Assembly: GCA_016858145.1 (NCBI GenBank)
Contig: JAEHOE010000122.1
Span: forward strand, 1 to 64,000
From: Edaphochlamys debaryana
Lineage: Eukaryota; Chlorophyta; Chlorophyceae; Chlamydomonadales
Reading direction: 5' to 3'
DNA: 64,000 nt
The notes beneath the pieces are model-generated. The model saw nothing but the letters and a program-made list of their open reading frames with translations. It searched no databases and was not told the origin of the DNA. Shown here piece after piece: positions 1,224 through 11,644 of this stretch. A program made the position numbers and the translations under genes. The first letter of the stretch is position 1, and every line of letters starts with the position of its first letter.

Positions 1224-4200
1224 ATGGCGGACCAGGGACTGCACAAGTTCCCCCGCACGCCACATTTGAGCAACCTGGGCGCTGCGACGCGCGACGACCT
1301 CGTCTTTACCCATGCAGAAGCGCTAGCCTTCCTCGCAAAGGGCGTTGTGCTGGGTGAGCCTCAGTCTGGGAGTCAGCACGCCTCAAAGCAGTTTCCATCC
1401 ATCCTCCAACCCATCCTTCCCGGGTTTGGCCCCCACCCGGCCCCCAACCTTCAGCGTCCACCCTAACCCGCCTGTCCTGGTTGCACTCCACAGAGGAGAA
1501 GGTCGATGGGGCCAACCTGGGCATCAGCTTTGCGGACGCGCACGGCGCTCCTCAGTGCCAAAAGCGGGGGCACTGGGTCAGCGCTGCCTCTGAGACGCAG
1601 TTCGCCAAGCTAAACTCTTGGCTGGGGACCCACACGGAGCAGCTCAGGCGTGTGCTAGGTGGGTGACACGTTCTGCCAGCCAGCACTCGGGCGGTGTGAG
1701 CGAGGGGGCTCGGTGGCGCGTGTGAAGGCCACGAGCCGGAAGCAGGGTGGTCAACGGGTGGTCAACGGGTGGTCCGTGATCTCCGTACGTACGCAGGCAC
1801 CCGTTACGTGCTGTACGGAGAGTGGGTGGCCGCCCGCCATTCCGTGCCGTACGACGCCCTGCCGGACTGGTTCCTCGCGTACGACGTGTACGACAAGCAG
1901 GCGGGCCGGTTCCTCAGCAGGTGCGGGCTTGGCGCCTCGAACCCACGCCTCCTGCGCCCTGGCCCCCCACAGAGCCCCTTCCTCCCTTCCGCTCTGCCCT
2001 GCCCTCACCCACCTTCACCTCTCTGCCTGCCACCGCTTATCTCCTTCATCCCCACACGCCCCCAGCTCCCGACGAGACCAGCTGCTGCGGGGCAGCGGCG
2101 TCCGCTCCGTGCCCGCCGTGGCTCCGGCCCCGGGGCGTGCCTTCACGGGGCCTGACGCGGTCGAGGCGGTGAGCAGGAGCACACGCTGCGTGCGGGAATG
2201 CGGATGGGTCCGGGTACAGTTAGCAGGGAGCTGCAAGACCGCCCAGTCTGTAATTGCCAATGGCACAAGGCGTATGGGATGCAGTGAAGAGCGCGAGGTG
2301 TTCGAGGTGGTGGGAGGCTGGCAGGCCCCCCCTAGCAGCCCGACCATGACTCACCTAGGTGCTTGGGATGGGATGGGACGCTGGCAGACCCACCATGCGG
2401 CAGTGCACCTGCCGTGGCGCTCAGCCTTGGGATCTCGATCGGCCCCGCAGGTACGGCAGCTGGTGCTGGGCCTGCGGTCCGCGCTGTGCGTGCCGGGCTC
2501 CGCGCAGTGGGCCGAGGGCGTCTACCTGCGCGCGGAGGACGGCGAGTGGCTGCTGGGCAGGGCCAAGCTGGTGCACCCAGACTTCCACCAGGTAGGTGGG
2601 GGCGGGTGGCCGTGAGGGCGGCCCGGGGCTTATGAAGGGCGCACCGGTGTGCAAGCGTCGGCTCCCACGCCTTGCCACGCCCCCTGGGCCCCGCACCATG
2701 AGCTGAAGTACGGGGCAGCCGTCGGGCTGCACATAGGCGGTGCGCAGCTGGGAATGGCGTCACCGATAAGGCCCCCGCGTGCAGTTGTCAGGCGAGCTGA
2801 GTGTCGTGGCGGTGTTCTTCCCGGTTGTGCCTGAACCCTCAGGCCATTGCGGATGGCGACGGCCCTCGCGGCTCCGGCGGCGGCACGCACTGGAGCAAGC
2901 GCGCGGTGGAGTGGAACCGACTGCGCCCCGACCTGTGGGAGCAGGCCGAGACGGGCGACGAGCAGGAGCAGGCGGAGGAGGACGGGAAGGAGGATGCAGG
3001 GAACGGCTCTGTGGCCACTGATACTCCGAGCGCAGATCTGGAGGGTGCGGGCGCGGCTGCCGGTGCCACCAAGCCACCAGGAGCACGTGCTGACGTGGCA
3101 CCAGAGCGTGCCACCCCAGCACCCGTTTTCCAAACTGCAACGGCAAAGGCGATTGCAGCCCAAACCCGCGTCGGCGGAGCCTCAGGGCCTGCTACGAAGG
3201 CCAGGTCTGCGGCTGTGACCCGGCCTGGAGCCCCGTGCGAGGCTGCGCCGGCTGCTACGGCCGTGGCGGCGCCAGAGGTGTGTCGGCTGCAGCTGTGCTG
3301 CGGCGGCGCCTACGTGGCGATGGTGGGACGGGCGGTGGACGCAGTGGCGGAGGCCGCTCTGGAGCTGGCTGGGGCCGCAGTGCCTGGGAGCTACGTGGGC
3401 AGGAGGTGCTTGAACCCGCCGGGGGGAGGGCACGGGTGGTGGTGGTGGTGGTGAGCCGGGCTCTTCTTCTTGATGTTTTTGGGGGCCCCTGGACCAGCAA
3501 GAGCGTTCGTGGTCTGATGGAGGTATGCATGCAAGCCTTGTCGTGCCCCGTCGTCGGACGCCCGAATGGCAGGGTCGCCCGCGACGGGGCTCATCACCAC
3601 GTGACCCTGATCGCGCCCCCCGAGATGGACGAGCTGCGCGAGGTGTACGGCATGGATCCGGACGAGGTGTACGAGCGGATCAAGGCCGAGGTGCGAACCC
3701 AGGTCCAAACTCTTCCTCCTCCTTACACAGCTGCGGCGGCCTCACGACCGCCCCCTTGCAGTTCTTTCCACATGCTTGCATCTCCCTCATTCCTTCAGCC
3801 CATCCCCATCCTTCAACTACCTGACACAGGTCGACCCTTCCGGCGGCCCCTGGCTGCCCCTGGGTCTGGGCCGCGCTCGGGACCCCTCCGCGGGGGACAC
3901 GGCGGTGTTCGTGCCGCTGGCCTGGCCCGCGGGCCGTGCGGCGCGTGCTGCGGTGGGGCTGGCGGACCGGGAGCAGCCCTTCCACATCACTCTGGGCTTC
4001 GACCGGGCGGTGAGTGTTTGGAACTCAGCAGCTACCAACACCACCAACACCGCCGGTAGTCAACACTAAAGTTCTCAGCTGGGCGTGCTCTGCACGCTGT
4101 AGCGTCGCATCCGTCTCCGTGACTGACCTGGGTCCCGACCCAACACGCGCAGAGAGGATCTCAAGGCCCTCACTGACCTCCCTTGCACCGCACTGCAGGA

Positions 4201-7200
4201 CGTGCACGGTCGGCCCAAGGGCCTGTCCAGCCTGGAGGGGGCCCGCCTGGACACGGCACGGGTGAAGGCGCTGGCGGCGGCCGCGGAGGCAGCGGGTGGG
4301 TGGCTGGGGCTTGCAGGCTCGCGCCAGAAGTCGGGGGCGGATTGCTGGTTCAAGCCCATCTGGCTCTGTCTAATGTGGGCCGTTTGCAGTCCTTCTAAGC
4401 CATGCGTGATCGCCCGTGCTGGTTTGCAGGTGTGCCCATGCCTCGCCACCTCTGCGGAGCGGTGGCGGTGCTGCAGGTGAGGCCGCGGCGGCTGAGGGGC
4501 ACCGGGCAGGGGCCCTGTTTGCGTGCTCTAAAGTCTTGCCCTTTTACCTCATGCCTGAACCTCACGCCCTCCCCTTGCTACCCTCCCGCGCTCGCAAGCA
4601 AACCAATCTTGTCCTTGTCCTTGCCATAGCCTCAACCTCGAGCCCTCAACCCGCCCTCGCTGTTTCCTTTCCAGGCCTTCACCGAGCTCCAGCTCAGCTC
4701 CAGCGGTGGCCCGCGCGCTGCAACCACTGAGGCCTCCACCTCGACCTCTACTGCGTCCACGTCAGCCCAATCACCCGAGGTGGTGGAGGCTCTGCGTGCC
4801 CTGCTGACCCTCGCCCTTGCCTGGACGTCTCGCGACGACGAGGAGGTGCAGCATCAGGGGGCAGCGGCGGCCCAAGGAGCTGACGGTCGGGAGCTGTTCG
4901 TGCGCGGCTGCGCACACGTGGCTCTGGCCCGACTGGCGGGCCGGTACGGCGAGTACGACGAGGTGGACGAGCATGTGGGGCAGGTACGACAGGACGGCAT
5001 GGCGGCGCACGGCGGCTATGGTCCATTGATTGCTTAGCGAACGGCAGCCTATCCCCACAGCCGGCTCCTGTTGCGATGCCTGAGCATGGTGTTGCATGCT
5101 CCCCATGCAGCCTGATCTTGGGTGCTCCCGATCCACACTCCCCGTGATGTGCCGTCTAAACCTCCTGGATCCGTGGTCCCCGTACAGGCTGCGGCAGCTG
5201 CCGCCGAGCTGGAGACTACGGCAGACTGTGTTGCGGCTCTGCCCGCCGGCGCCCCTCACGTGCTGGCTGCTGCCGCTGCGGGGCTGGTCGGCAAGGCCCT
5301 GGCGGCCCGGGAGCGGTTTGCCGAGGCGGCCGCCGCCTTCGAGACCGCAGCCGCTGAGCTGGGGTGAGTCGGGAGGGGGGGCCACGAAAGCACACTCGGG
5401 GTGTGACAGTGCTGCTGGGGGAGGTCGGGTGGGTTCCTCAACCCGGGCATGCGTACGGGGCATCTGGTCACAGTGGTCAGTCAAACGGCCCCAAGCATCT
5501 CGCCATGCCCCGAGCACAGCTTCCGCGATGGGTCCTCAGCAACCCTCTCCCCCACCCTTCCCTCCCCCCACCCATCCATTCCTTTCAGTCGCATGGGCCT
5601 CCCGGACGCTTCCGACCTCTCCGCCGCGCCCCTGCCCCTGCTGGCACGCGCCCTGGCCGACGGCTGCCTGCCCCCGGCTGAGGCCCAGCGTGCGGCCGCC
5701 GCCTGCACCCGCCGCCTCGCCAAGCAGCAACACAAACAGAGCCCGAGCCCGAGCGAGGACCAGGCGGAGCAGAAGGGAGATGTGGCGGGGGTAGATGGAG
5801 GGGCTGGAATGGGGGAGGAGGCAGGGGTGGAGGAGCAGGAGGGGGCGGGGTGTGAGGAGCTGACGGGGGAGGGCGCGGGCGCGGGCGCCGCGGCGCTGGA
5901 CCCGCGCGAGCGCTTCACGGTGCACGGCGTACAGCTGCCCGCGTCCGTACTAGCCGCTGGTACGGCAGCAGATGGTACGGCAGATGTGACGCTGATGCGC
6001 AACACCAGCTGGCTGGTGCCGGGGGCGGTCATGGGGAGCAGCACCCCGAAGCGACCCGAGCAGGTGGGTGCAGTAAGGCAAGGGAAAGGGGACTGTACTT
6101 CACAGATGGGACAACTGTGGGGGGAGCGGGGATGATTTGTGTGCAGGATGGCCGCCAGGCCACCCGGGCCCACGAATTGCGCTCATTAACGGTTCTTCCT
6201 GCCTCGCCCCCATGTCCGCAGATCTGGGCGCTTGCCGCGCTGGGCGTGGGCTTAGTCATCACCCTGACCGAGGAGGAGCCCCTGCCGGCCACGTGGTTCG
6301 CCCCCAATGCGCCTGCCGTACAAGCACGGGCTGGATCCGCGCCGCCGCCCGTACGGAACCTGTTCGTGCCCGTGCCCAACTATGAGCCGCCGTCCGTCGA
6401 GCAGATGGACGCCATCCTGCTCGCCCTGGAGCAGCAGATCGCCGGATCAGATCCTGCCGTACATGGCCGTACGGCAGCGCCGCCGTCACGTGGCGTGCTG
6501 ATCCACTGCGGCGGCGGCAAGGGCCGCGCGGGCACCGCCCTGGCCTGCTTCCTGGTGAAACACGGGCAGGACAAGCCAACCGTCAACCGCCAACCGTCAC
6601 AAGCCCCTGCCATGTCGGCCGACGCGGCGGTACGGCTGATCCGAGCTGTACGGCCTGGATCAATTGAGACGGAGCAGCAGCGCCGCTTCGTCGGGGCCTA
6701 CGCGGACGAGCTGTGGCGGCGGTACGACACGGCAGTGGCGACGGCGCCAGAGGAGGGGGCTGACAAGGATGGCCCCGCCAAGGCAGACAATGACGAGGAC
6801 AACGGAAAGGGCAAGGGCGCGACGAAGAAGAGGGAGCAGGGGAAGAAGTCCACTGGCGGCAGCTCAGGCTCGGGCACCCAGGCCGCGGCGGGAGAGCCAC
6901 GCGGCAGCGCTGGCGGCAGCGGGAGCCCGAGCTCTGCTGCGGAGCGGGCGCAAGCCCCAGATCACGGGGGAAGTGTGGCAGCGCGCGAGGAGGGCGCGGC
7001 GGCGGTGGGTGCCAAGGCGCCCTCGGCGGCACTGCCCGGCGGAAACTACCCGTCCACGCCGCACCTGCCCTTCAGCCCCCAGGTGAGGTCGGGCGGCGTC
7101 CTGGCGGCACCCTCCACACGTCTTAGCGTAGCCGCTCCCGCTTGGGCTCGCCCCCCCGTCTCCTCTCCATCCTTACTTGGTCATCCTCCCGTCCCCCCCC

Positions 7201-10200
7201 CCCACCAGGTCGCGGACGATGACTCCCAGTTGGACGCCGCCGCAGCCGCAGCTGCCTTCCTCCACCAGCCGCTGGTGAGCGCATACCGGTGTCTTGTTGC
7301 CTGCGGTTGCAAGGATGACGACGACAGTGCTCGTTGCATCCCGCTGTTGCATCCTTGTTGCCTGCTGTTGCCACGATGACGACCACCGTCCTCGTACCAC
7401 ATCAGAGCCCCCGGAGGACGGCGCGGACTGCAGCATTTCAGGGCGGTGCCCTGTGGTGTCCCGCCGGCTTCCGCACTGCTAAGCGTTCACGAACCGCCCC
7501 CCAACCGCCAACCGCCAACCGCCCGCCGCCGCAGGTGATCACGGAGAAGCTGGACGGCGGCAACTGCTGCATCATGCACGACCCAGATCAGGATCCAGAC
7601 CTGGATCCGGATCTAGATCCGTACGGCGGCGCGCTGGTCGTGTACGCGCGCACGCACAAGCACCCCGCGGCCCACGCCTCGTTCGGTCCCGTGCGGGCGC
7701 TGGTGGCGGAGCGCCTGACTGGGCGGCTGCCTCGGGGCGTGGCTCTGCTGGGTGGGTGGGGGGTTGAGGAGGGCAAGGGAGGGAGGCGGGGAGGGTCAGG
7801 AGAGGGGGAGGGGGGGAGGGGAGGGGGGGAGGGTCAGGAGAGGGGGAGGTGGGAGGGTCAGGAGAGGGGGAGGTCAAGGAGTGGCGGTAAGAGGGGCAAT
7901 GGGAATGGGGTGGTGGCCACCGCTTGGCGTGGCGTTGCTGGGCGGGTGGCGGGTTGTGGAGAATTTTGTGGAGGGGTGGATGGGGTGGAGGCTTTCGGGG
8001 TTTAGGAGGGAGTGGAGGGGGTCGGGGTGACAGGCAGAGCAGGAGAAGGCGTGGGGCCGGGGCCGGGGAAGAGGTGTGGAGGGTGGGCAGTAGGGAGGAG
8101 GTAAATGCATGTCTTCGACTGCCCAGATCGGCCTCCCACGTGGCCCCCGTGCTCATGCCGATGCAGGCGAGAACATGACTGCCGTACACAGCATCGAGTA
8201 CGGCAGCGTGCCCAGCTGCTTCTTCCTCTTCGCCGTGTGGAACGGGCGCAGGCAGGTGAGACGCACATGTGTGGTTTCGCCCCCCCGGGGCGAAGGGGCA
8301 CAGATGAGTGGGTGCAGTAGGGGCCTCTGCCTCTGCTATGGTCCGTCCCCGTTGTGCCTTACCCACCAACCATCCTGACCTCAACCCACCCACCCACCCA
8401 CCCACCCGCCCCCCCCCAGGCCTGGGCCTCCTGGTCAGAGGTGGAGCAGTGGGCCGCGGAGCTGCAGCTCCACACAGTGCCACTGCTGCACCGGGGTAAG
8501 CCCTTGGTGTGCTTGACCCTGGCGGGCAGAGGGGACCAGGAGATGCAATTGTGTGTTTCCAAGCCTTTCCATGATACGCCAATCCGGCGCTAAACCCAGC
8601 TTCTGTTCTTCCTCCCCACCCCTTCCCACCCCCCCACCCCCCCAGGCTCCTTTGCCTCGCTGCCGGCGCTGCAGGCGGCGCTCGGTGCGCTGGCGGCGCA
8701 GCCCTCGGCACTGGACGGGGCCTCACCGCGGGAGGGCTTCGTGGTGGGTTAGGCGGGGTGGGTGGGGTGGGCCGGTCCGGAGGTACGGGCGCGCTCGAAG
8801 CACAGCGGATGGACAAGGTGTGCGAGGGGCGAAGGGACTTTGCAAAGGGGCGTACCTTCACGCACCCGTCAACCCTCCCCCTCCCCTTGGCTCCATTGGC
8901 CTCCTCTGCCCCCGATCCCTCCGATTCCCCCCAGGTCCGCACCGCCAGCAGCTTCCCGGCAGCTTCCTTCGGCGCCCACGTGGCCAAGTACGTACGGCAG
9001 GGTCACGTGCAGACGCGGCCCGGCTGGCGGCGCACGTGGAGGCAGGCGCGCATCACACACCAGGAGCCCACGCCGCCGCCGGCGCCGCCGCCTCCACCGC
9101 CGCCAGCGTTGGAGTCTGAAGCGCCGATGCCGGTGCCGGCGCCGGGGCGGGGGCGGGGGCACAAGGTGGAGCAGGAGGCGGCGCAGGGGCAAGCGACGAC
9201 AGCGGTGGCAGCAGCGGACGACTCTCAGGCAAAGGCGGGGAACAAGGGAGCCGCAGCCGGTGCGGCGGGCAAGCCCGCCGCGGCCGCGGCGGCGGCGGCG
9301 GCGGCGGCAGCGCAGCCGGAGACGCCGAGGGTGCCTGTGGCGGCAGCGGTGCCGGAGACACAGCCGGGGAAGCCGGCGCCGGACGCGAACGCACCACCGG
9401 GGCCGCAGCAGGGCCGGCGCGGTGAGGGCAGCGGCGGCGGCGGCAGCGGCGGGGGCGGCCGGGGCAAAGGCCGCGGCGCTCACGGTTCCAGCGCAGGATC
9501 TGGATCTGGATCTGGATCCGGCCTGCCTCGGCTGGTGATGCTGGTGGGCCTGCCGGGCAGCGGCAAGAGCACCTTCGCGCAGGCCCTGGAGGCGAGCGGC
9601 AGGTCAGCGAGGGGCCTCCCTGGAGGGTGGTCGGCAACGATTACGTACGCAGCGACAGTCTCGGAATCACGGCATGGGGTCACGACCGGGCCCAACCTGC
9701 ATTGTATGTGCATCCATCTCACCTTCGCACTTCCTTCACCTTTCCTTCCCTCCCTCCCCTCCCCAACCCAGCTGGTCCCGCATAAGCCAGGACGACTGCG
9801 GCTCCCGGGGGGCGGCGGAGGCGGCCTTCGGGGCCGCCATGCTGCGGGGCCCGGCGGGCGGTTGGCGGGCCCACGTGGTCCTTGACCGCTGCAGCGCTGA
9901 CGTGGCGGACCGAAGGGCCTGGCTGGACCTGGGCCTGATCAGCAAGCGGGACAAGGGTGAGGGGAGTGGTTGAGGGGGAGGGAGGGAGGGGGGGTGCGAG
10001 GACGGGGCTGCGAGGAGGGTGGGGGCAAGATGGGGCCTCGGGGAAGCCGCAACGGCTGTGGAGCCACCTGGTGCGCTGGGACGGAAAGAGCACACAGCGC
10101 CTCCGGGTGCCGCCTCCCCTGCCTCCTCACATTGCTCAACCCCCCCCCCCCACACACACACACCAACCCCCCCCCCCAGGCGTGGTGGCGGTGTTCTTCG

Positions 10201-11288
10201 ATGTGGACGCCCCCACCTGCAAGGCCCGAGTGGCGGCCCGCCCCGACCACCCCACCATACCGCAGGGTGAGCGGCGGGGCAGGGCTGTGGGCAGGGTGGT
10301 GGAGGCTAGCTGTGGGGCGCTGTGGGGGGAATCTGTCCGCCAGCAGCGGCTACCGCATTTCCTGCGCCCCCCCTAGCCGCGGTATGAGCCCGTCGTTGCC
10401 CCACGTCCCGGCCAAACCACAGCCAACCTCCCACCCCGCCCAAACCCATCCCCAAACCCCACCCCCATCCAGGCCGCGGCGGTCGCGCGGTGGACTCATT
10501 CGCCGCCCGCCTGCAGCCGCCCACACCCGCGGAGGGCTTCGAGCGGGTGTACACGGTGCGGGGGCGGGGGGACGCGGAGGCGCTGCTGGCGGCGTGGGGC
10601 GCGGGCGGGCGCATGCTGGTGGACGAGGGCGTGGCGGCGGCGGCGGAGGCAGCGCTGCGTCGGGGTGCGCGCGGCAAGGGGTGCGGCTGGGACGACTGGG
10701 GCGCGTATGAGGTGGAGGGTGAGGCGGAGGCGCAGGAGGCGGGGGCCGAGGCCGGGGCCGGGGCGGGGGCGGCGGAGGAGCGGGCGGCGTGAGGGCGGTT
10801 GGAGACCGGGGTGGCCGGGGGTGAAGGTGCGCGGTGGTGGTGATGGGAGCTGCCCAGCTGGGGAGGGGGGTCGGGGGGAGGGGGCGTGCGGAGTGCGCAG
10901 CGCGGGGTGTGTGCCGAGGAAGGTGGAAGGGTCGAGGCACACGCTGAAAGCTCTGCACCCAACAGACCTTCCAGCAGCTCCAGGGGCGTCGCTGGCAGCG
11001 ACCTCCTATCCTCCCAAGCCAGAGGACATGGCGCCTCAGCCGCCAAACATGAGTCCACATGCACACATCTCGTCCACCACATGAATCCCCAGGTCCGTGG
11101 CTAAGGCTCTGAAAGCAGGGCACGGACTGGTGGTGACGCCCTACCTCACTCCCCTGGGGCGGGCGCTGCGGCTGGAGAGGGGTCCTGTGTTTAAGAAGCT
11201 GGCGGCTGGTGGCCTGACGCCCCGCTGGTGCAAGGGGGCTGACATTGAGTTCCTGGAAGGCGGCAGCTGGATGCGGTACGGGTTCTGA
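1224..11288 (+). CDS. Five-module RNA repair protein: RNA ligase - 2H phosphodiesterase - DSP-type phosphatase - RNA ligase - polynucleotide kinase
   Basis: Twenty-four exons: 1224-1353, 1494-1658, 1797-1920, 2066-2168, 2451-2591, 2843-3450, 3498-3690, 3830-4009, 4199-4295, 4430-4476, 4675-4983, 5188-5363, 5589-6063, 6222-7082, 7209-7274, 7535-7751, 8167-8255, 8420-8495, 8646-8743, 8935-9602, 9772-9956, 10180-10266, 10473-10788, 11093-11288; about 1868 residues with phase closing throughout. Modules: ligase 1 has FPRTPHL, KVDG (nucleotidyl Lys46), EGVYLR 196-201 and Lys213; the 2H fold has HVT 458-460 and HIT 540-542; the phosphatase has HCGGGKGR at 1011-1018 (CX5R); ligase 2 has YPSTPHL at 1192, KLDGGN (Lys1230), ENM...HSIEY, EGFVVR 1382-1387 and Lys1403; the kinase has GLPGSGKST 1590-1598. 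Together they could open 2',3'-cyclic phosphates, remove phosphate, phosphorylate 5'-OH ends and seal RNA. Exon 7 start (47-nt intron) and the last exon are least certain: reading through the 10789 donor gives a stop at 10790-10792 and 1804 residues. Confidence 0.8.
7918..7965 (+). repeat. Degenerate donor echo in RNA-repair intron 16
   Basis: GGCGTGGCGTTGCTGGGCGG resembles the end of the preceding exon plus its donor (GGCGTGGCTCTGCTG|GGTGGG at 7736-7756), about 190 bp downstream. The copied donor has lost its GT (GCGGGT). It lies after a G-rich minisatellite of GGGTCAGGAGAGGGGGAGG units (7793-7880). Confidence 0.5.
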
Positions 11289-11374
11289 CCTGAGCTTGGT
11301 TTGCGAGGGTGATTTCGTGAGGGCGTGAGCCCGCGGGCTGTGCCGAGGTGCTGTCAAGCACGTTTGGGCACTGG

Positions 11375-11379
11375 TGTAA
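11375..11379 (+). promoter_or_regulatory. TGTAA poly(A) signal of the RNA-repair gene
   Basis: TGTAA is the usual volvocine algal polyadenylation signal. It lies 87 nt after the stop at 11286-11288 and 583 nt after the alternative stop at 10790-10792, so it fits either gene end. The convergent SGNH gene ends at 11645. Confidence 0.55.
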
Positions 11380-11644
11380 CGCACTCACTCACTCCCCAAG
11401 ACCACCTGTGGCAGCTACAACCAGCTCGACTACAACACACCGCCAAGAGAGAACCATCCACTATCCACTCTCCAACTACTTTCAGCGCCCGCACTCCTGC
11501 CCTCCCCCTCTCACACACACCCCACCCTCGGCTGCCCTCCCGCCCCTACGCTCACCTGCCCTGCGCACCCGTACTCGGCCCATCGCCCCTAAACCTCAGC
11601 CTTCTGCTTCTGCCACTGCACCCCATACATCGCAATCCATTTCA

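What the first reader, a model, noticed from the sequence alone, without database searches (positions are those of the whole stretch)
1224..11288. One gene seems to encode a complete RNA repair pathway
Seen: in-phase exons join KVDG ligase motifs, two HxT motifs, an HCX5R phosphatase loop, KLDGGN ligase motifs and a GxxGSGKST P-loop in one ~1870-residue chain. Known: KxDG nucleotidyltransferases seal RNA, 2H proteins open 2',3'-cyclic phosphates, P-loop kinases phosphorylate 5'-OH ends. Inference: the protein heals and seals broken RNA, either as the alga's tRNA-splicing ligase or as a response to ribonuclease damage. Plant tRNA ligase joins ligase, kinase and phosphodiesterase; I know of no described protein with this five-part order and two ligases.
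Basis: partly seen in the sequence, partly recalled or inferred. Interest (0 to 1): 0.92.

Follow-up and report, generated by a model that had tools for sequence, protein, structure and literature searches.

The report
All-in-one algal RNA repair protein
A green-alga gene appears to encode one large protein carrying every enzyme predicted to be needed to mend broken RNA, including two different ligases; it is an unusual variant of a family already named 'Swiss Army Knife' proteins.

Summary
On the + strand, 23 exons (1224-10792) join in phase through 22 GT..CAG introns into a 1764-residue chain. Pfam finds two RNA_ligase domains, 2H-SAK, PTP-SAK and a P-loop kinase; expected catalytic residues are present.

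It belongs to a family Pfam names 'Swiss Army Knife'. Of 172 proteins examined, 100 have the order 2H-PTP-kinase-ligase A, 15 have two ligases, 10 have all five modules, and this order occurs once. The two ligases are separate lineages; ligase B has standalone bacterial relatives.

Most likely mechanism: 2H opens 2',3'-cyclic phosphates, PTP removes the phosphate, the kinase phosphorylates 5'-OH ends, the ligases seal. The chemistry is inferred. The genome also encodes RtcB, which makes damage repair likelier than tRNA splicing. New variant of a known kind.

The parts
1224..10792 (+). Whole coding region, 23 exons: 1224-1353, 1494-1658, 1797-1920, 2066-2168, 2451-2591, 2843-3405, 3573-3690, 3830-4009, 4199-4295, 4430-4476, 4675-4983, 5188-5363, 5589-6063, 6222-7082, 7209-7274, 7535-7751, 8167-8255, 8420-8495, 8646-8743, 8935-9602, 9772-9956, 10180-10266, 10473-10792; 1764 aa, TGA at 10790-10792
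   Evidence: all 22 introns GT..CAG, one terminal stop; two homologues align across several splices
1230..2920 (+). Ligase A (residues about 3-247): ATP-dependent RNA ligase domain PF09414; K46 (motif I), E107 (III), E196 (IV), R211xK213 (V); motif names recalled
   Evidence: own-genome search with PF09414 found exons of this module only, and missed ligase B, so it is not sensitive to split domains
3296..4246 (+). 2H phosphoesterase, 2H-SAK PF22547 (residues about 373-524): H418xT420 and H500xT502
   Evidence: paralogue with similar exon borders on contig C99
4675..5730 (+). Region between 2H and PTP, possibly helical and TPR-like
   Evidence: TPR hits below the curated cut-off in relatives P0002, P0006 and P0009 only; inference
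5965..6728 (+). DSP/PTP-type phosphatase, PTP-SAK PF22784 (residues about 844-1045), loop HCGGGKGRAG at 6504-6533
7029..9054 (+). Ligase B (residues about 1146-1385): second PF09414 domain; K1190, R1224, E1259, E1342, K1363
9520..10606 (+). P-loop polynucleotide kinase-like module AAA_33 (residues about 1541-1703): GLPGSGKS, D1575, D1606, R1607, R1650
11090..11394 (+).

Best explanation
The gene encodes a Swiss-Army-Knife-family RNA repair enzyme of 1764 residues in the order ligase A - 2H - helical region - PTP - ligase B - kinase. On RNA cut so as to leave 2',3'-cyclic phosphate and 5'-OH ends, the 2H module opens the cyclic phosphate, the PTP module removes the remaining phosphomonoester, the kinase adds phosphate from ATP to the 5'-OH, and an ATP-dependent ligase seals the 3'-OH and 5'-phosphate ends. 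2H plus PTP would thus do what the phosphatase of T4 Pnkp does. The two ligases probably serve different broken substrates. Shown here: gene structure by prediction, family membership, intact catalytic residues, separate ancestry of the two ligases. Inferred: every chemical step, the division of labour, and the biological role (repair of damage rather than tRNA splicing).
For: One in-phase chain with 22 GT..CAG introns. Pfam profiles over their curated cut-offs for all five modules, two of them named for this family. Homologues with the same modules in single predicted proteins, among them MMETSP transcript ORFs: P0002 is labelled complete; the labels of P0003, P0094 and P0095 are cut off in the listing after 'comple' or 'com'. 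Catalytic residues present in the window protein at columns conserved in the family: 2H 116 rows, PTP 170, kinase 170, ligase A 164, ligase B 16. Kinase module's nearest solved chains: 9d8a 'Rhizopus azygosporus Kinase' E 7e-19, 9drz 1.4e-18, then PNKP (1yj5) E 2.5e-7. A kinase-profile ORF lies in 40 of 76 bacterial loci with a ligase-B relative; in L057, the only one of the 40 whose neighbours I scanned with Pfam, these are a kinase with HAD_PNKP phosphatase and a T4-Rnl1-like ligase. RtcB is encoded elsewhere in the genome.
Against: No transcript of this gene was seen; the exon 6 donor (GTGCTT) is weak and the linkers are low-complexity, so details may differ. No enzymatic data. The PTP module's nearest solved relatives by sequence are labelled dual-specificity phosphatases, among them DUSP23, so a protein or 5'-triphosphate substrate is possible. 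The window departs from some conserved columns, for example S1609 in the kinase (N in 160 of 170 rows) and R1030 in PTP (E in 167 of 170). Single-sequence searches of either ligase gave no meaningful PDB match; profiles gave weak ones only, and for ligase A the three best are labelled DNA ligase. The related Chlamydomonas eustigma protein P0006 lacks ligase A and 2H, by a truncated gene model or by real absence. The paper that I recall as describing the family (10.1093/nar/gkw722) is not held, so what it says of two-ligase forms is unchecked.
Confidence: 0.72

Rival explanations
1. It is the alga's tRNA-splicing ligase, a functional stand-in for the plant or fungal Trl1-type enzyme.
For: Similar set of activities (ligase, kinase, 2H) to plant and yeast tRNA ligases, which carry all healing and sealing activities in one protein (PMC3400036, passages). 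No T4_1-type ligase profile (PF09511) was found in the genome. A weak, partial Tpt1 match exists (one stretch, profile positions 4-61 of 177, 27.8 bits against cut-off 26); Tpt1 would remove a 2'-phosphate left at a splice.
Against: RtcB is encoded on C9 (five exon-sized hits) and could splice tRNA without it. The negative is uninformative because no control genome rang. A PTP module that strips the phosphate would be redundant with Tpt1. The family's occurrence is patchy (fungi, rotifers, moss, fern, liverwort, oomycetes, some algae).
Confidence: 0.12
2. Two genes lie here: ligase A-2H (to about 5.7 kb) and PTP-ligase B-kinase (from about 5.6 kb).
For: P0006 of C. eustigma holds only PTP-ligase B-kinase. 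A separate 2H-plus-following-region paralogue exists on C99.
Against: P0093 (ligA-2H-PTP-kinase), P0002 (ligA-PTP-ligB-kinase), P0013 and P0023 (2H-ligA-PTP-ligB-kinase) cross this point in one predicted protein. The splices keep phase throughout.
Confidence: 0.07
3. The PTP module is not an RNA-end phosphatase. It acts on protein or on 5'-triphosphates, and the repair pathway ends with a 2'-phosphate that another enzyme such as Tpt1 removes.
For: Nearest solved relatives by sequence are dual-specificity phosphatases (25xa E 6e-12, DUSP23 2img E 1.5e-10). Yeast and plant CPD domains leave 2'-phosphate (PMC3400036, passage). A weak, partial Tpt1 match is present in the genome.
Against: PTP is fused to the other modules in 170 of 172 proteins examined, and the loop HCGGGKGRAG is nearly invariant in 170 rows. 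This count is biased upward: whose query was the PTP region, returned 91 of the proteins (79 of them new), and the query also holds PTP. Residues typical of 5'-triphosphatases were compared from recall only.
Confidence: 0.25
4. It is a DNA-break repair protein (PNKP- and ligase-like).
For: The kinase also matches PNKP. The three best profile matches of ligase A among solved chains are labelled DNA ligase, though weak (E 0.004-0.006).
Against: 2H-SAK and PTP-SAK modules; both ligase domains match Pfam RNA_ligase; Naegleria RNA ligase follows the DNA ligases at nearly the same E-value (0.0064).
Confidence: 0.04

Closest known systems
Swiss Army Knife (SAK) proteins (Pfam PF22784 PTP-SAK, PF22547 2H-SAK)
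   Same: 2H, PTP, P-loop kinase and RNA ligase in one chain; curated cut-offs passed.
   Different: The commonest order is 2H-PTP-kinase-ligase A (100 of 172). Here ligase A is N-terminal and a second, distantly related ligase B is added; this order was found once in 172.
Two-ligase, five-module SAK-type proteins (P0001, P0003, P0004, P0094, P0095, P0096, P0099, P0013, P0023 of Amoebophrya)
   Same: All five modules, with ligase A and ligase B of the same two lineages.
   Different: 2H stands at the N-terminus; in seven of the nine, ligase B follows ligase A directly.
Bacterial cassette in an Actinoplanes-type genome (L057): T4-Rnl1-like ligase, T4-Pnkp-like kinase-HAD phosphatase, ligase-B-like RNA ligase
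   Same: A ligase-B homologue is encoded beside another ligase and a kinase.
   Different: Separate genes; HAD phosphatase in place of 2H plus PTP; first ligase of another family (PF09511).
Plant and fungal tRNA ligases (Trl1/RNL)
   Same: Healing and sealing in one polypeptide with ligase, kinase and 2H (PMC3400036, passages).
   Different: No PTP and one ligase there (recalled). The Pfam tRNA-ligase families PF09511, PF08302 and PF08303 are not among the window protein's hits; relatives P0001 and P0093 match PF08303 below its cut-off.
T4 Pnkp plus Rnl1
   Same: Same overall chemistry predicted: 3' end to OH, 5' end to phosphate, then sealing (PMC3400036, passage).
   Different: Two phage proteins; HAD phosphatase (recalled) instead of 2H plus PTP.

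Membership tests
Swiss Army Knife (SAK) RNA repair | PTP-SAK phosphatase domain with HCX5R loop | tested here: met
   PF22784 E 7.1e-47, 159.7 bits against cut-off 27; H971, C972, R978
Swiss Army Knife (SAK) RNA repair | 2H-SAK domain with two HxT motifs | tested here: met
   PF22547 E 3.3e-16, 60.1 bits against cut-off 27; H418xT420, H500xT502
Swiss Army Knife (SAK) RNA repair | PF09414 RNA ligase with catalytic lysine | tested here: met
   two stretches, E 1.7e-56; K46 and K1190
Swiss Army Knife (SAK) RNA repair | P-loop polynucleotide kinase-like domain | tested here: met
   AAA_33 E 6.1e-11; nearest solved chains are kinases
Swiss Army Knife (SAK) RNA repair | all modules in one polypeptide | tested here: met
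   met by the spliced prediction and in homologous predicted proteins; no transcript of this gene seen
Swiss Army Knife (SAK) RNA repair | RNA end healing and sealing activity | not testable with these tools
   needs enzymology
Plant/fungal tRNA ligase (Trl1/RNL) | order ligase-kinase-CPD with one ligase of the Trl1/T4_1 type (order recalled) | tested here: not met
   observed order ligA-2H-PTP-ligB-kinase; no PF09511, PF08302 or PF08303 hit in the window protein at E up to 1. Plant RNL may not be covered by these profiles
T4 Pnkp-type kinase-phosphatase | HAD_PNKP phosphatase fused to kinase | tested here: not met
   no HAD_PNKP (PF25109) hit, while it is found in bacterial L057
RtcB 3'-5' ligase | RtcB fold PF01139 | tested here: not met
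   absent; RtcB is a separate gene on C9

The most novel reading that the evidence does not exclude
Some algae and other protists have fused into one enzyme two RNA ligases of separate descent: the SAK-lineage ligase A and a bacterial-type ligase B, whose relatives in Actinoplanes-type bacteria lie beside a T4-like kinase-phosphatase. Each ligase is kept for a different class of broken RNA (for example single-stranded loop breaks and nicked duplexes). The protein would be a complete repair pathway that leaves no 2'-phosphate and needs no partner enzyme.
Probability: 0.4. Interest if true: 0.68.

Novelty: new variant of a known kind. Interest (0 to 1): 0.5.

Why it matters
If the reading is right, one polypeptide takes RNA from the raw ends left by a ribonuclease to a sealed strand, with no other protein. 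That gives a single recombinant protein on which the whole heal-and-seal route, the role of a PTP-type phosphatase in RNA-end healing, and the reason for two ligases of separate lineage can all be tested. It would also bear on how eukaryotic microbes answer attack by RNA-cutting toxins, a role that has been suggested for RNA ligases in rotifers facing a fungal pathogen (PMC11258130, passages).

Tried and rejected
It splices in phase, but lies in a repeat (150 of 241 candidate places scored, all 150 matched, the window's own included; DNA copies at up to 98%), has no Pfam match and no counterpart in the alignments with two relatives. An exonised repeat cannot be excluded without cDNA.

Rejected: 'no relatives with two ligases' (15 of 172 have both).

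Led nowhere or stayed open: PDB matches for the ligases by single sequence; profile matches to solved ligases were weak. Search for a T4_1/Trl1-type ligase in the genome: none, but no control rang, so it shows nothing. The own-genome PF09414 search found ligase A exons but not ligase B, so it cannot show that no further ligase exists. The own-genome Tpt1 match is weak and partial. PTP-SAK gave eight further, weaker places in the genome (E 1.1e-7 to 5.5e-4), not examined. Whether eukaryotic ligase B sits inside the bacterial ones: the tree does not decide (bacterial rows as one clade not rejected, p-AU 0.634). The first homologue search with the whole model gave two hits only, probably because low-complexity words filled the candidate list; later searches used P0002 and the PTP region. 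NCBIfam gave only matches far below its cut-offs. Structure prediction was not run. No paper describing two-ligase SAK proteins turned up in the listings; the paper recalled as describing the family is not held, so this is not a claim that none exists. Window tRNA and Rfam scans found nothing.

Counts and their limits: the 172 proteins are all 171 returned plus the window model. Some are fragments, so a missing module can be truncation. Searches scored only the 7975 and 7995 candidates sharing most words; one search scored 3154. The ligase trees used chosen proteins, leaving out segments of 150 residues or less: 69 segments, 65 (39 of 76 bacterial loci), both by the quick method. In one search, ligase A profile hits on the same ORF as a better ligase B hit were dropped.

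Full report
What was checked. The window is the first 64 kb of contig C122 of a 141.9 Mb, 502-contig genome, with GC of 61-76% in 2-kb steps. Size and GC resemble Edaphochlamys debaryana (142.14 Mb, 527 contigs, GC 67.1%, in a passage of PMC8226300); this identity is an inference.

Gene model. Reading the + strand from 1224, I placed exon borders by frame and by GT/AG sites. Ending at the TGA at 10790-10792 leaves 23 exons and 1764 residues. All 22 introns are GT..CAG. If read through, 16 of the 22 give at least one in-frame stop; of the other six, four shift the frame and two (introns 4 and 14) would stay open. Codon third-position GC is 0.83 against intron GC of 0.65. ATG 1224 is the first ATG in its open frame. 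BLAST against two homologues runs across several of the splices, including the one with the weak exon 6 donor (P0001). A 2H paralogue on contig C99 has, by eye, a similar acceptor and similar borders.

The last exon. The 64 residues at 11093-11288 match many places in the genome: the protein search scored 150 of 241 candidates and all 150 matched, the window's own place included. DNA matches in many copies stop at 11090, and window 11090-11394 is the longest shared piece, at 89-98% in the 11 other places fetched, some of them matching only part. Ten of the eleven had their flanks printed: all ten share sequence upstream of that point that the window lacks, and six end in or near an (ACTC)n run. 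One copy on C37 lies in a 415-residue open frame. The window copy is thus probably a truncated repeat, and the gene most likely ends before it. The repeat contains a TGTAA at 11375, which could serve as a poly(A) signal (motif recalled).

What the protein is. Pfam gives RNA_ligase twice, PTP-SAK, 2H-SAK and AAA_33, all over their curated cut-offs. Two of these are described by Pfam as 'Swiss Army Knife' domains; that the name stands for RNA repair proteins is recalled. Three homologue searches returned 171 proteins from, among others, fungi, bdelloid rotifers, a moss, a fern, a liverwort, oomycetes, green and red algae and other protists, including Chlamydomonas eustigma and Amoebophrya. Module profiles built here gave these orders for 172 proteins, window included: 2H-PTP-KIN-LA 100; PTP-KIN-LA 42; 2H-LA-PTP-KIN 10; 2H-LA-LB-PTP-KIN 7; LA-PTP-KIN 3; LA-LB-PTP-KIN 2; 2H-LA-PTP-LB-KIN 2; and one each of LA-PTP-LB-KIN, PTP-LB-KIN, LB-KIN-LA, KIN-LA-LB, LA-2H-PTP-KIN and LA-2H-PTP-LB-KIN (the window). 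Two ligases occur in 15, all five modules in 10. The nearest orders are P0093 (the window's order without ligase B) and P0002 (without 2H).

Active sites. In alignments of 116 (2H), 170 (PTP), 170 (kinase), 164 (ligase A) and 16 (ligase B) rows, the window protein has the conserved residues expected to be catalytic in each module: H418xT420 and H500xT502; H971, C972 and R978; the P-loop 1550-1557 with D1575, D1606, R1607 and R1650; K46, E107, E196, R211 and K213; K1190, R1224, E1259, E1342 and K1363. Which residues are catalytic is recalled. It departs from the family at some conserved columns: M854, T857, M866 and R1030 in PTP (R1030 is E in 167 of 170 rows), S1609 in the kinase (N in 160 of 170), K67, Y127, S140 and H216 in ligase A, and F1277 in ligase B.

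Two ligase lineages. In a tree of 69 ligase segments, all 16 ligase B rows form one side of a branch with SH-aLRT 100, and the window's ligase A pairs with that of P0093 (92, not starred). Ligase B has standalone bacterial relatives in 76 loci, at 33-40% identity in 75 of them and 50% over the best segment in one. In 40 of the 76 an ORF matches the kinase profile. In L057 three neighbouring genes are a T4-Rnl1-like ligase (PF09511), a kinase with HAD_PNKP phosphatase, and the ligase B homologue. Of the other bacterial loci only L030 had any protein scanned with Pfam, its ligase alone. Whether eukaryotic ligase B arose from within bacteria is unresolved. Ligase A and ligase B relatives also occur in viral contigs (25 and 5 loci), mostly as single ORFs; L105 holds a ligase A next to a 2H-PTP-KIN protein on the other strand.

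How it probably works. T4 Pnkp turns 2',3'-cyclic phosphate and 5'-OH into 2',3'-diol and 5'-phosphate, and Rnl1 seals; yeast and plant CPD domains instead leave a 2'-phosphate (PMC3400036, passages). Here 2H would open the ring and PTP would take off the phosphate, the kinase would supply the 5'-phosphate, and ligase A or B would seal. That each step happens is inferred. The kinase is closest to a solved kinase labelled Rhizopus azygosporus and to PNKP; the PTP to DUSP23-type phosphatases, which leaves its substrate open.

Role. The genome holds RtcB and a weak, partial match to Tpt1, so tRNA splicing need not depend on this protein, though that is not excluded. RNA ligases thought to be horizontally acquired are strongly upregulated in two bdelloid species attacked by a fungal pathogen, and a defence against ribotoxins has been proposed (PMC11258130, passages). 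For desiccation and radiation the reports differ: PMC11258130 found no RNA-ligase enrichment after desiccation, while PMC10809525 (passages) reports RNA ligases overexpressed, two of them only in the radiation response. Whether any of those are SAK proteins was not checked; SAK proteins do occur in Adineta and Rotaria.

Verdict. Real and nearly as described, minus the last exon; a member of a named family in an arrangement seen once in this sample, within a two-ligase subgroup. New variant of a known kind.

Noticed in passing
window 11090-11394: Apparently truncated copy of a high-copy interspersed repeat just 3' of the gene, carrying an open 64-aa stretch and a TGTAA; one fuller copy (C37, L011) lies in a 415-residue open frame.
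   Followed up: partly
G000 contig C99, about 323.9-325.7 kb (L144, L145): Separate paralogue of the 2H and following region with similar exon borders; no ligase, PTP or kinase module scored significantly in the 19.8 kb examined.
   Followed up: partly
L057 2028-4615 and other Actinoplanes-type loci: Three-gene bacterial RNA repair cassette in L057: T4-Rnl1-like ligase, kinase-HAD phosphatase, ligase-B-like ligase; kinase-profile ORFs in 40 of 76 loci.
   Followed up: partly
L105 4929-7392: Viral contig with a ligase A ORF beside an opposite-strand 2H-PTP-kinase ORF, like a SAK protein split in two.
   Followed up: no
P0016, P0075, P0115 and P0008, P0097, P0123: Fungal SAK proteins whose precomputed domains include a pfkB-type kinase (PF00294: P0016, P0075, P0115); others carry PF05773 (P0008, P0097, P0123).
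   Followed up: no
42 proteins of the PTP-KIN-LA group, many from Mortierella relatives: SAK-like proteins, many of them long, without a recognised 2H module; truncation, divergence and loss were not separated.
   Followed up: no
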